From Nitrospira sp. ND1 (GTDB lineage: Bacteria > Nitrospirota > Nitrospiria > Nitrospirales > Nitrospiraceae): DNA of 64,000 nt. The notes under the pieces were generated by a model. The model made no database searches and was not told the origin of the DNA. It worked only from the letters and a program-made list of their open reading frames with translations. The translations under genes and the position numbers were made by a program. Shown here in pieces: positions 28,502 to 44,040 of this stretch. The first letter of the stretch is position 1. Every line of letters starts with the position of its first letter. The DNA lies in NCBI RefSeq assembly GCF_900170025.1, contig NZ_FWEX01000006.1, positions 2,819,236 to 2,883,235 on the forward strand, read 5' to 3'.

Positions 28502-28626
28502 GCAGGATGGTCAAAACGGCCGTTCAGCAAGGCCGCAGCGAGCGAAGGGCCAAGGCGTACCCTTGCGGTACGTTGAGGTTCTGAATGAGGCGAGAACGAA
28601 GCTGACGGTCGTTTTCACCATCCTGC
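28502..28626. repeat. Palindromic intergenic repeat, copy 2 (125 bp)
   Basis: Terminal GCAGGATGGTcAAAACG and the complement of CGTTTTCACCATCCTGC match at 16 of 17 positions. The interior contains the core TTCAGCAAGGCCGCAGCGAG and a CGTACCCTTGCGGTACG stem. It lies between the convergent murU and NtrC-family genes. Exact length equals copy 1. Confidence 0.8.
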
Positions 28627-38788: not shown

Positions 38789-38887
38789 AAAATCCTCCCA
38801 GCCTCGTCTCGCTTCGCTCAAACCCTCAACGTACCTCAACCCGTACGCTTCGGGCTTTTGCTCGCTGCGGCCTAGCTGGATAGGCTA
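38788..38887. repeat. Palindromic intergenic repeat, copy 3 (degenerate ends)
   Basis: In reverse orientation this segment contains the family core (ATCCAGCTAGGCCGCAGCGAG) and a CGTACGGGTTGAGGTACG region followed by GAGCGAAGCGAGACGAGGCTGGGAGGATTTTTC. The terminal inverted repeat is largely lost on one side. It lies directly after gltD and marks the left flank of the Hachiman island. Confidence 0.65.
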
Positions 38888-39105
38888 TTAGAGCGGCCTG
38901 GGCTGCATAAAGATCCTTCGTTGAGACCCCAACCCGGCTGCTAATTGTCCTCTGATCCGCTAGAATGGCGCCGTGCATCAATGATGTTCTAGGCAAATTC
39001 AGCGGACCGCAAAAGTTTAGAAAGGACTCCCGCTACATTTTCTGCGGCTCTCGCCAGCGTGCCAAAACCGCAATCAGGATCGCGGTTTATTGATCGGGGG
39101 ACGAC
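38888..39105. other. Upstream region of the Hachiman operon
   Basis: No gene. A -10-like TAGAAT occurs at 38961-38966, without a convincing -35. The base composition and short A/T-rich patches differ from the flanking glt genes. The GTG start of hamA is preceded by a G-rich stretch (TCGGGGGACGAC). Confidence 0.4.
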
Positions 39106-39888
39106 GTGGGGCTGTATGAGAGGTGGTGCAAGTCCACAAAAAAAACGGACAAGCGCAAGCACTACTGGACCTATGTTGAGAAGGATGGCGGCCGCATTGA
39201 GATCCGCAATGATCTCGCCGAAACCATCCGCTCGCACTACGACCGACTCGAACGCATCGCCGAGGATGTAAATCGACTTGGATACAAGGTCGCCAGTGGA
39301 ATACTCAGCACGGCAATGCCTCAAACTGCCAAGGGCCGTTCCGGCGACTTCGGCGAAATTCTCGCGACCGAACTGGTCGAGGAAGAGATCGGGCTTCGAG
39401 TCCCCGTGCGTCGTCTCCGTTACAAGGACGGCCGTAACATGGCCATGCGCGGTGACGACTTCATCGGTGCTGGATACGATGGAGACGGCGAGAAGCTCTG
39501 GCTCCTGAAGGGTGAGGCCAAGAGCAACAAGGTACTCGGCAAGGCCACGATCATGAGCGCCCGCAAGGTGCTCAACCGCGACAATGGCCGTTGTACGCCC
39601 GACTCACTGCTGTTCGTCGCCAATCGCTTGTTGGAGAGTAATGACCCGGTGGACAACGAGCTAGGCCGCAGCCTTCGTGACGAAGTAGGTCTAAAGTCCC
39701 TCCGTGCCGATCGCATCGACCACATGCTCTTTACGGTGTCTGGTAACGGTCCCCACGCCTCGCTGGAGAAGGACCTCGACACCATCGGGACCAACCGGGA
39801 CCATTATGTCGTGAACATCCACGTCGAAGACCACCAAGACTTCATCGCGGCCATGTACCTGGAGGCAGAAGACCTTGGAGACGATTGA
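39106..39888 (+). CDS. hamA: Hachiman anti-phage system protein HamA (DUF1837 nuclease)
   Basis: The protein has 260 residues, GTG start, with an in-frame stop 15 bases upstream fixing the N-terminus. The DUF1837 core shows GDFGEILATELVEEEIG at 80-96 and a PD-(D/E)xK-like site: Asp117/118 in RGDDFIGAG, then GEAKSNK with Glu137 and Lys139. In studied Hachiman systems HamA is the effector that degrades DNA once released by HamB, and these are the positions expected for catalysis. The stop overlaps the start of hamB. The assignment rests on family motif plus the neighbouring helicase. Confidence 0.82.
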   Translation: MGLYERWCKSTKKTDKRKHYWTYVEKDGGRIEIRNDLAETIRSHYDRLERIAEDVNRLGYKVASGILSTAMPQTAKGRSGDFGEILATELVEEEIGLRVPVRRLRYKDGRNMAMRGDDFIGAGYDGDGEKLWLLKGEAKSNKVLGKATIMSARKVLNRDNGRCTPDSLLFVANRLLESNDPVDNELGRSLRDEVGLKSLRADRIDHMLFTVSGNGPHASLEKDLDTIGTNRDHYVVNIHVEDHQDFIAAMYLEAEDLGDD

Positions 39889-42800
39889 CGAACTGACGGC
39901 GTTCCTGACGACTGCGACCGTAGACGGTATCCTTGGGCGTCTCCTCTATCGTGGCGCGGCCTGGTCGCTCATGCGGGCAGAGGGCAAACTGCCGCCCAAT
40001 GCGCCGCCCCTTGGGGGGGCAATTGACACTGATCTCGCCGAACACGGCTTTGCCCTGCTCCGAGGCGCGATGGCCCTGCGTGCTCAAGCTGGTGCTTCGG
40101 AGCTGACCAGCAAGGCTTTCGAGCGTGCTGCCAATGCGTTTGAAGCCCTAGTGCGCAACGCTGACCCCGAGGCGCCTGATCGCGGGTTCCGCCGTACCAT
40201 AGCCGCCTGTGCGTACCATCTGGCCGGCTTCTCGGCCGTCGCCTATTCGCTCTTCAACGAGACGGCAGGCGACCTCAACACATCGCCGGGCGAAAAGGCG
40301 ATCCGCCATCTGATCCTGCGAGATCTTGACCAGTTGCGTGGCTTCGTTCGCGGATGGCTGGACGACGAGGCTCATGGTGACGAGCAGATCGCTCAAGCCT
40401 TGCGGGGCGAAGAACCCGACGTTGACGAGGTGCTGTCGACCATCCTCAATACGACGATCTGTCGGGCCCTGCTGTTCTTCGATTTCGCGCTTGAGACGGG
40501 CGAATACCAGCCGATTGAAAGCGCACGGGCTTTGCTTGCCACGGCAGTTAGCCTGGCAGACAACGCTGGGAATGTTCCGCTGTGGTGGATTTCGAACCTC
40601 TGCCGCCACCTAATCGACGATCTGTGGCAGCACTCGTTGCACCAGAACCTGCCGACCGAGCCGCCCAAAGGCACAGAGGAAACATATCCGGACCTGCGGC
40701 GACTGTTCATTTCTTCGCTCTATGCTCGCAAGACTTCGGAGGTGGAGCTATGGCCGTCACAACGTGAAGCCGCCCGACGTTCCACGGACGTCACGGACGA
40801 TTTAGTCGTTGCCCTACCAACTAGCGCGGGAAAGACTCGGGTGGCTGAGATCGCCGCCCTGATGACCCTGTCCTACGCACGACGGGTGCTGATCGTCACG
40901 CCGCTGCGCGCCTTATCGGCTCAGGCCGAGAGGTCCTTCAGAAAGACCTTTGCGCCTCTCGGCTTCAAGGTCTCCTCGCTCTACGGCGCCAGCGGCCTTT
41001 CGGCCGGTGATGAAGACGCTCTACGCATCTGCGAGATCATAATTGCGACGCCCGAAAAGCTCGACTTCGCACTAAGAAGTGATCCGTCACTGATCGACAA
41101 TGTAGGGCTTATCGTCCTCGATGAAGGGCACATGATCGGTCCGAGTGAGCGCGAAATCCGCTACGAGACTCTGGTGCAGCGTTTACTTCGGCGTTCAGAC
41201 GCGGCCGAACGCCGGATCGTCTGTCTTTCCGCAATCTTGCCGAGCGGCGACGAACTCGACGACCTCACGGCCTGGATTCGTGCCGACGAACCAGGTGAAC
41301 CGGTGCGTTCTGGCTGGCGTCCCACGCGACAGCGGTTTGGTGCGCTCACTTGGCGCGGCAAGGACGCGCTCCTACAGTTCGACCTCGACGACGATGGTCC
41401 TTTTCTCGACAGGTTCGTTGTGGAGAAACCAGCGCTAGGGACGGAGCGGAAGCCTTATCCACGGGCGAACTCCCATCTAGCTTTGTTCGCAGCATGGGAG
41501 TTCGCGAGGCAGGGCAAGCGCACCCTGATTTTCTCCACCCAGGCGAACTGGGTCGAGGGGTATGGCAAACAGGTCGTGGATCTTTGTAAACGCGGTTATC
41601 TGGACTCGTTGCTAGATGACAAGATGTCGATCGCCCGCGCTCTGGAGGTCGGCAAGGAATGGCTAGGCGAGGATCATCCCGCTGTGGCTAGCCTGAAGGC
41701 GGGCGTCGCAATCCACCATGGCCGACTCCCGAGCCCGTTCCTGCGTGAGCTGGAGATTCTTCTGTCCGAGGGCGTGCTGAAGGTGATCGTCGCCTCGCCC
41801 ACGCTCTCGCAGGGTCTCAACCTCAACGCCGCTGTCCTGCTGGTGCCCGCGCTCCATCGGTCGAGCAAGAAGATCAAAGGCGAGGAGTTCGCTAACGTTG
41901 CTGGCCGTGCGGGTCGTGCGTTCGTCGACGTCGAGGGGCTGATCGTCCATGTTATGTTCGACAAGATTAGATGGCGCAAGAAAGAATGGAGGGGGCTGGT
42001 CGCCTCCGCCAAGGCTCGCACGCTAAAAAGCGGTCTTATCCAGATCGTTGCTGAGATTCTTAACCGTCTGACGCGCGAGGGTGTTCTGGATCGAGAGGAC
42101 GCTTGGGAATATCTCGCCAATTCCCGCGAAGCCTGGCGATCGCCTGACGAAGAAGCTGTGGTGGCTGATCGTCTGACTCCTGCCGTGGAATACAGTGCGG
42201 AAGACGATGCCGAAGAAGGCAGTAGCGGCGACGAAGAGGATAGCATCGACGAAAGGCCTCTGTCCCATCTCGTCGAACGCCTCGATTCAACCGTGTTTGG
42301 TCTGATCGAAGCATTGGATGCTGATCGAGCTGACCTACCGAAGCTCTTGGACGAAGCACTTAAGGGATCGCTCTGGGCTCGTCAGATCGCCCGTGAAGAA
42401 GAGGATGTCGCCCCTCTGCACAGAAAGGTGCTCGGCGCACGCGCCGACCTCATCTGGAGGACGACCATAGCGCAAGCACGGCGCGGACATTTCGCTATGG
42501 GAGTCGGGCTAGAAGCTGGCCTAACCATCGACGCCATGGCCGACGAGTTGGCCGAACTTGTCGACCGGGCCGACGCCGCCGCGCTGGGCGGTGACGTCGA
42601 CGAACTCGCCCACGCGCTTAGCAGTCTCGGCGAACGCCTTCTATTTATGCGGCCATTCATCCCCGACAAGGCGAACGCGTTGCCGGAAAATTGGAAGGCT
42701 ATCCTTCGCAGTTGGGTGTCCGGGGAGGAAGTCTCCAAAATCGGACAGCAGAACATGCGGTCAGTCGAAGAGTCCTTCACCTATCGCTTAGTCTGGGCGC

Positions 42801-43378
42801 TGGAAGCCGTTCGCACCCGTAGAATGTCCCTTGGTTGGTCGCCGGAAACGGTGGCGGGCGGCGCAGCGGCTGCGATCGAAACCGGCGTCCCGCAGTTCAT
42901 GATGGCGATGCTGATCCGCGCGGGCCTTCCGTCAAGGCGGGCGGCTATGGCGGCGATCGAGAATGCGAAGCCTGTCTTCGTCACGCCTGCGGAGATGCGG
43001 GCGTGGCTCGAGTCCGACGAGATCACAGCCTACACCGACGCTGGCGGGTGGCCCACGGCCGACACCGCCGCACTATGGGCACGATTCCGAACCGAAGCCC
43101 TCAACGTCGGCATTCAGAAATGGTCAGTCGAACACTACAAGCGGTTGCTCGACGCTGAGGCCCCCCCGCCCTCCGGCCTCTACCGCATCGTCACCGACGA
43201 GGGTGATGGACGGACTTGGCTCACAACCCCCGACTACCAACCGGTCGCAGCATTCAAGAAGCCAGCTGTCGACCCTAAACCCAGCCTCTTCTCGGGCCGG
43301 CTGCCAGAAAAGGGTAGGCTCGTGGAAGCCTTGCGCGTCGGCCGCGGAAAACTGAGCTGGCCGCGCGCCGATCCGTAA
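39875..43378 (+). CDS. hamB: Hachiman anti-phage system helicase HamB
   Basis: The protein has 1167 residues. TTG start with GGAGG nine bases upstream, overlapping hamA by 14 bases, so the genes are translationally coupled. About 310 helical residues precede the SF2 helicase core: Walker A PTSAGKT at 315-321, DEGH box at 416-419 (a DEAH variant), SAILPSG near 452, SPTLSQGLNLNAAV and motif VI NVAGRAGRA at 674-682. An acidic insert (EDDAEEGSSGDEED) lies near 775. A helical C-terminal part of about 400 residues ends with a proline-rich tail. HamB senses abnormal or invading DNA and controls HamA. Confidence 0.85.
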   Translation: METIDELTAFLTTATVDGILGRLLYRGAAWSLMRAEGKLPPNAPPLGGAIDTDLAEHGFALLRGAMALRAQAGASELTSKAFERAANAFEALVRNADPEAPDRGFRRTIAACAYHLAGFSAVAYSLFNETAGDLNTSPGEKAIRHLILRDLDQLRGFVRGWLDDEAHGDEQIAQALRGEEPDVDEVLSTILNTTICRALLFFDFALETGEYQPIESARALLATAVSLADNAGNVPLWWISNLCRHLIDDLWQHSLHQNLPTEPPKGTEETYPDLRRLFISSLYARKTSEVELWPSQREAARRSTDVTDDLVVALPTSAGKTRVAEIAALMTLSYARRVLIVTPLRALSAQAERSFRKTFAPLGFKVSSLYGASGLSAGDEDALRICEIIIATPEKLDFALRSDPSLIDNVGLIVLDEGHMIGPSEREIRYETLVQRLLRRSDAAERRIVCLSAILPSGDELDDLTAWIRADEPGEPVRSGWRPTRQRFGALTWRGKDALLQFDLDDDGPFLDRFVVEKPALGTERKPYPRANSHLALFAAWEFARQGKRTLIFSTQANWVEGYGKQVVDLCKRGYLDSLLDDKMSIARALEVGKEWLGEDHPAVASLKAGVAIHHGRLPSPFLRELEILLSEGVLKVIVASPTLSQGLNLNAAVLLVPALHRSSKKIKGEEFANVAGRAGRAFVDVEGLIVHVMFDKIRWRKKEWRGLVASAKARTLKSGLIQIVAEILNRLTREGVLDREDAWEYLANSREAWRSPDEEAVVADRLTPAVEYSAEDDAEEGSSGDEEDSIDERPLSHLVERLDSTVFGLIEALDADRADLPKLLDEALKGSLWARQIAREEEDVAPLHRKVLGARADLIWRTTIAQARRGHFAMGVGLEAGLTIDAMADELAELVDRADAAALGGDVDELAHALSSLGERLLFMRPFIPDKANALPENWKAILRSWVSGEEVSKIGQQNMRSVEESFTYRLVWALEAVRTRRMSLGWSPETVAGGAAAAIETGVPQFMMAMLIRAGLPSRRAAMAAIENAKPVFVTPAEMRAWLESDEITAYTDAGGWPTADTAALWARFRTEALNVGIQKWSVEHYKRLLDAEAPPPSGLYRIVTDEGDGRTWLTTPDYQPVAAFKKPAVDPKPSLFSGRLPEKGRLVEALRVGRGKLSWPRADP

Positions 43379-43638: not shown

Positions 43639-44040
43639 ATGGAGGCAGGCGACGAAGACTTAGACCCACAGCTTGTGCGCGGTTGGTTCGACACATTCTT
43701 GGAACATCGCTGCATTTGCCAGTACTGCGGATTCGACGGTAGCTGAACGCCAGAAGATTGGGTACAGCTTCAAGGCGACCATCTCATTCCTCGCAACATT
43801 GCGGGGGAGCATGCCGAGGCCCCTTTGAACCGAGTCACCTCTTGTTACTATTGCAATAGCCGCAAGCGTCGCTACGATTCCGCGCATGGACATTTTACGA
43901 AAATACCAAGCCGAGAAGTCCAGCGAGAACTAATTCAAGATGCTCGAAAAGAGATCCAGCGGCGGAAGGCTGATATTTGGAAGTATGGCGGTGGCCTCGA
44001 GCAGAGTTACAGGTTCATGATGCAGCGTCTTCGTCCATGA
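43639..44040 (+). pseudogene. HNH endonuclease gene with an in-frame UGA stop
   Basis: A frame of 133 codons starts at ATG with GGAG eight bases upstream. It would encode MEAGDEDLDPQLVRGW, then CICQYCGFDGS, a TGA stop at codon 36 (43744-43746), then TPEDWVQLQGDHLIPRNIAG and NRVTSCYYCNSRKRRYD up to the normal TGA at 44040. The parts before and after the stop join into one HNH fold: two CxxC zinc pairs, the catalytic DH of GDHLIPR and the N of CNSRK. One base change (for example CGA to TGA) would explain it. No other frameshift is seen, so decay looks recent. It lies in the same island as Hachiman and probably came with it. Confidence 0.75.

What the first reader, a model, noticed from the sequence alone, without database searches (positions are those of the whole stretch)
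39106..43378. Hachiman-type defence pair HamA-HamB between gltD and a DUF5069 gene
Two overlapping genes encode a DUF1837 protein with a D117/118...E137-x-K139 nuclease-like site and a 1167-residue SF2 helicase with PTSAGKT, DEGH and NVAGRAGRA motifs. Order, overlap and sizes fit Hachiman. They sit on about 5 kb of accessory DNA between conserved genes, flanked on the left by a palindromic repeat. HamB has about 310 residues before the helicase core, which may be a distinct sensing or HamA-binding module.
Basis: partly seen in the sequence, partly recalled or inferred. Interest (0 to 1): 0.75.

Follow-up and report, generated by a model that had tools for sequence, protein, structure and literature searches.

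The report
Imported Hachiman anti-phage defence gene pair
This is an intact, horizontally acquired copy of Hachiman, a known bacterial defence pair in which a helicase senses damaged DNA and releases a nuclease that destroys all DNA in the infected cell; it is an ordinary member of a well-studied family, found in an unusual host lineage and in a variable chromosomal slot.

Summary
Window 39106-39888 encodes HamA (Pfam HamA 2.3e-23; PADLOC HamA1 3.6e-109) and 39875-43378 encodes HamB (PADLOC HamB1 1619 bits). HamB aligns with solved E. coli HamB (8vx9_B, E 4.6e-239) over residues 3-1098. The catalytic residues map one to one: E137/K139 to E138/K140, and D416 of DEGH to D431. dN/dS is about 0.08, so the pair is under purifying selection. 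The '310 residues before the core' are not a new module; they align with the known HamA-binding N-terminal helical bundle. The pair is nested among proteobacterial HamAB (up to about 90% identity), absent from the 28 congeners searched, and rare in its phylum (7 of 396 genomes). It was acquired as a nearly bare 4.3-kb two-gene module inside a pre-existing variable slot between gltD and the DUF5069 gene (0.25-5.5 kb among relatives, with other toxin/defence-type genes). The left palindrome is a degenerate copy of a genome-wide repeat, also at gltD in relatives without hamAB; it does not mark the insertion. Verdict: genuine Hachiman, a new member of a known kind, of low general interest. The slot and its duplicated gltD 3' ends are the only less ordinary features. 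No defence phenotype could be tested.

The parts
39106..39888 (+). hamA, 260 aa, effector nuclease of Hachiman (DUF1837/HamA)
   Evidence: Pfam HamA 2.3e-23; PADLOC PDLC00159 3.6e-109; 8vx9_A E=1.3e-32 with E137/K139 aligned to E138/K140
39875..43378 (+). hamB, 1167 aa, Ski2-like SF2 sensor helicase of Hachiman, TTG start overlapping hamA by 14 nt
   Evidence: PADLOC PDLC00174 1619.5 bits over 1-1163; 8vx9_B E=4.6e-239 over 3-1098; overlap conserved in 74 of 80 loci
39881..40780 (+). part of hamB encoding the N-terminal alpha-helical (NAH) HamA-binding region (roughly residues 3-302; approximate limits)
   Evidence: aligned throughout to the N-terminus of solved HamB 8vx9_B; NAH described in PMC12278908
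38976..43395 (+). maximum extent of the imported segment: resident DNA shared with congeners ends at 38975 and resumes at about 43396; DNA homology to proteobacterial hamAB loci runs from 39047 (at the furthest) to 43388
38935..38975 (+). resident 41-nt element (83-90% identical in four congeners, where it ends at or near the GTG start of a nucleotidyltransferase gene); possible captured promoter (inference; the sigma-70 scan did not score it)
   Evidence: alignments to L032, L034, L036, L040
38789..38905 (+). degenerate copy of a genome-wide palindromic interspersed element (about 126 bp); present in relatives without hamAB, so not an insertion mark
43639..44040 (+). HNH-endonuclease pseudogene (one in-frame TGA at codon 36), resident cargo of the same slot, intact in congener L043

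Best explanation
This is a complete type-1 Hachiman system (HamA1-HamB1). By homology to the solved and tested E. coli ECOR31 complex, HamB holds HamA inactive on intact double-stranded DNA. When a 3' single-stranded end, made by phage replication, recombination or host-genome breakdown, enters the helicase, ATP hydrolysis frees or activates HamA, which degrades phage and host DNA and aborts infection. Shown here: near full-length homology, intact catalytic and helicase motifs, conserved operon overlap, purifying selection, horizontal acquisition and patchy distribution. Inferred from published work on relatives: HamA-HamB binding, DNA-damage sensing, DNA clearance and phage defence in this host. 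The pair was imported as a two-gene module with at most a few tens of bp of flank shared with proteobacterial relatives. It entered a variable slot between gltD and the DUF5069 gene, where a nucleotidyltransferase gene lies in several congeners.
For: HMM and PDB matches. One-to-one mapping of residues shown essential for defence in ECOR31 (E138/K140, D431; PMC12278908). 135 of 136 near-invariant HamA positions are kept, and all but six of 622 in HamB apart from the start codon. dN/dS 0.07-0.12 against four relatives. hamA-hamB overlap conserved in 74 of 80 loci. Nested among proteobacterial HamAB: SH-aLRT 100 for a 55-row clade in which every other row is proteobacterial, nearest by path Pseudomonas sp. 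PIC25. Absent in 28 congeners, 7 of 396 in the phylum. Carried on plasmids elsewhere, one typed as conjugative. Insertion limits bounded on both sides.
Against: No phenotype was tested. No promoter could be scored upstream of hamA on its strand. The window's terminal branch is longer than the median (0.14 against 0.038), so some drift is possible. One genome per species is held, so presence or absence within the species is unknown.
Confidence: 0.95

Rival explanations
1. A decaying or non-functional Hachiman remnant: the genes were imported but are no longer selected or expressed.
For: A neighbouring HNH gene in the same slot is a pseudogene; the window branch is long; no clear promoter was found.
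Against: Both ORFs are full length; catalytic and helicase motifs are intact; dN/dS is about 0.08.
Confidence: 0.05
2. A related nuclease-helicase pair of another kind, such as AbpAB or a DNA-repair Ski2/Hel308 system, rather than Hachiman.
For: HamB also matches Hel308 models and other helicase-based defence models, at much lower scores; AbpA carries a HamA-like C-terminal domain (PMC12278908).
Against: HamA is a stand-alone 260-aa protein with its own active-site residues and no N-terminal Cap4-like nuclease. HamB scores 1619 bits for HamB1, while all Hel308 models are far below their cut-offs. Distribution is patchy, unlike a housekeeping repair gene.
Confidence: 0.01

Closest known systems
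Hachiman HamAB of E. coli ECOR31 (PDB 8vx9, 8vxa, 8vxc, 8vxy; PMC12278908)
   Same: Gene order, HamA length (260 vs 259 aa in the deposited chain), HamB length (1167 vs 1174), N-terminal HamA-binding helical bundle, catalytic residues, helicase motifs.
   Different: Moderate sequence divergence; host is a different, unnamed lineage; no experimental test of this copy.
Proteobacterial HamAB of the PDLC00159/PDLC00174 subfamily (e.g. Pseudomonas sp. PIC25 L112, P. flexibilis L148, Thauera L113, Sinorhizobium plasmid L196)
   Same: 85-92% protein identity in the nearest ones, same 14-nt overlap and TTG start, alignable at DNA level (about 80-86%).
   Different: No shared DNA beyond about 60 bp upstream of hamA and 10 bp downstream of hamB; chromosomal slot differs.
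AbpAB
   Same: Nuclease plus Ski2-like helicase, activated by DNA damage (PMC12278908).
   Different: AbpA has an extra Cap4-like nuclease and an inactive HamA-like domain; not the case here.

Membership tests
Hachiman (HamA-HamB) | HamA (DUF1837) nuclease domain over its curated cut-off | tested here: met
   Pfam PF08878 83.7 bits (cut-off 25), PADLOC HamA1 362 bits
Hachiman (HamA-HamB) | HamA active-site residues E138/K140 (ECOR31 numbering) | tested here: met
   E137/K139 aligned without gap, invariant in 64 relatives; essential in ECOR31
Hachiman (HamA-HamB) | Adjacent HamB Ski2-like helicase with Walker and DEGH motifs | tested here: met
   PDLC00174 1619 bits; PTSAGKT 315-321, DEGH 416-419
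Hachiman (HamA-HamB) | HamB-specific N-terminal helical bundle (NAH) that binds HamA | tested here: met
   sequence alignment to 8vx9_B from residue 3 onward; the structure itself was not predicted
Hachiman (HamA-HamB) | Formation of a HamA-HamB heterodimer activated by DNA ends | not testable with these tools
   needs biochemistry
Hachiman (HamA-HamB) | Anti-phage phenotype | not testable with these tools
   needs phage challenge
AbpAB | N-terminal Cap4-like nuclease fused to a catalytically dead HamA-like domain | tested here: not met
   HamA is a single 260-aa domain with intact catalytic residues

The most novel reading that the evidence does not exclude
The gltD-DUF5069 interval is a previously undescribed accretion hotspot in this genus, in which small toxin/defence gene modules are added or swapped through repeated copies of the gltD 3' end plus adjacent palindrome, without an integrase in the interval. 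hamAB entered by this route, replacing a nucleotidyltransferase gene and possibly using its promoter.
Probability: 0.2. Interest if true: 0.4.

Novelty: new member of a known kind. Interest (0 to 1): 0.2.

Why it matters
It adds a clean example of Hachiman crossing from Proteobacteria into a distant lineage as a nearly bare two-gene unit, and it points to a recurrent chromosomal slot for toxin/defence genes in this genus. It does not change the understanding of how Hachiman works.

Tried and rejected
(1) Left palindrome as island boundary or att site: rejected. It is a genome-wide repeat, present at gltD in relatives lacking hamAB, and the window copy itself folds no better than shuffles (z 0.49), while the family consensus does (z -4.99). 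(2) New sensing module in the HamB N-terminus: rejected (PMC12278908). (3) Third system component: the downstream HNH gene is a pseudogene whose intact relative sits at the same site in a congener without HamA, so it is resident cargo, not part of Hachiman. (4) HamA-SAVED fusion suggested by annotation of Manganitrophus plasmids: the gene is an ordinary HamA-sized ORF followed by a helicase, so the label is probably a misannotation. (5) Phage carriage: no match in 50,697 phage records, one viral contig. (7) Structure prediction was not run because the solved relative already aligns nearly full length.

Full report
What was checked. The first matches Pfam HamA/DUF1837 at 83.7 bits against a cut-off of 25 and PADLOC HamA1 at 3.6e-109 over its full length. 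The second matches PADLOC HamB1 at 1619.5 bits over residues 1-1163. Generic Hel308 and other helicase models match it only far below their cut-offs.

Comparison with the solved complex. HamA aligns to 8vx9_A (E 1.3e-32, residues 2-251). The ungapped alignment around the active site pairs E137 and K139 with E138 and K140 of ECOR31 HamA, the residues that read A in 8vxy_A. Their double mutation abolishes defence in ECOR31 (PMC12278908). HamB aligns to 8vx9_B at E 4.6e-239 over residues 3-1098. D416 of DEGH corresponds to D431, whose mutation also abolishes ECOR31 defence. The roughly 300 residues before the helicase core align with the N-terminus of solved HamB, where the paper describes the NAH helical bundle that binds HamA and is common to HamB orthologs.

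Is it intact? Over 64 complete relatives the window differs at one of 136 near-invariant HamA positions and at six of 622 in HamB besides the start codon, which is read as M; none of these lies in a catalytic or helicase motif. dN/dS against four proteobacterial relatives is 0.07-0.12 for HamA and 0.07-0.10 for HamB. The gene pair has clearly been under purifying selection over the branches compared. This cannot exclude loss of function very recently.

Where it came from. A genome scan returned 80 relatives, almost all Proteobacteria, HamA 61-92% identical. 74 of 80 have the same overlap; a TTG start of hamB is the rule. A tree of 65 concatenated pairs puts the window inside a clade (SH-aLRT 100) in which every other row is proteobacterial, nearest by path Pseudomonas sp. 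PIC25; its exact position is not strongly resolved, and the root is only a midpoint. HamA is absent from the 28 congeners searched and present in 7 of 396 genomes of the phylum, the others with much more divergent HamA. Close relatives sit on rhizobial plasmids, one of them typed as conjugative with a Tn3-family transposase upstream of hamAB. No phage record carries it. Horizontal acquisition from Proteobacteria is the straightforward reading.

How much was imported. DNA similarity to proteobacterial loci begins between 39047 and 39107 in most cases and ends between 43360 and 43388. Resident DNA shared with congeners runs up to 38975 on the left and resumes at about 43396 on the right. The import is therefore about 4.3-4.4 kb: hamAB and little else. 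Among proteobacterial pairs, several with over 90% DNA identity also share no more than about 150 bp of flank, though others share kilobases. So bare transfer is a recurrent but not universal pattern. In four congeners the left 41-nt element ends at or near the GTG start of a nucleotidyltransferase ORF. In the window that ORF body is missing and hamAB follows. Capture of a resident promoter is possible but only inferred; the sigma-70 scan did not score it.

The chromosomal slot. Among 19 relatives with gltD and the DUF5069 gene on one fetched stretch, the interval measures 249 to 5,074 bp; the window has 5,461. Other cargo includes a HEPN AbiU2-like gene, PIN-domain genes, a DUF6036 nucleotidyltransferase, a RelA/SpoT-domain gene next to a ParA-like ATPase, a MUG113/T5orf172 gene and an HNH gene. 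The window keeps a copy of that HNH gene with one in-frame stop. Several relatives carry second copies of the gltD 3' end inside the interval; the longest is 341 bp at 90% identity in L036. The mechanism that makes these duplicates was not determined.

The left palindrome. The region 38789-38905 is a degenerate member of a dispersed family of about 126 bp with around 40 detected copies in this genome. The family consensus has long terminal inverted repeats and folds far better than shuffles (z -4.99); the window copy does not (z 0.49). Congeners without hamAB have it at gltD too. It is not the boundary of the Hachiman insertion.

Limits. Nitrospira is my guess from general knowledge of DUF5069-bearing genomes; it was not tested. 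Expression, complex formation and phage defence are inferred from work on relatives. Verdict: a real, intact, horizontally acquired Hachiman system; a new member of a known kind.

Noticed in passing
window 38789-38905; also 28525-28604; G000 genome-wide: Dispersed palindromic element of about 126 bp (consensus CAGGATGCTGAAAAAG...CTTTTTGAGCATCCTG), around 40 detected copies in the genome.
   Followed up: partly
L036, L032, L034, L040, L041, L044 (gltD-DUF5069 interval): Second, partial copies of the gltD 3' end with the adjacent palindrome lie inside the interval, between cargo genes; cause unknown.
   Followed up: partly
window 43639-44040; L043 16748-17146: HNH endonuclease gene with a single in-frame TGA in the window; an intact 91% identical copy lies at the same site in a congener.
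   Followed up: yes
L035, insert between gltD and DUF5069 gene: RelA/SpoT-domain protein next to a ParA-like ATPase and a third small protein of no known family; looks like an uncharacterised toxin or defence operon.
   Followed up: no
L194, L195 (Candidatus Manganitrophus plasmids CP114559, CP114554): HamA annotated as a SAVED-domain protein, followed by a helicase and an XamI-type restriction-modification pair; probably a misnamed Hachiman.
   Followed up: partly
L196 (Sinorhizobium fredii conjugative plasmid): hamAB directly downstream of an AbiEii-family toxin pair and a Tn3-family transposase, a likely vehicle for spread.
   Followed up: no
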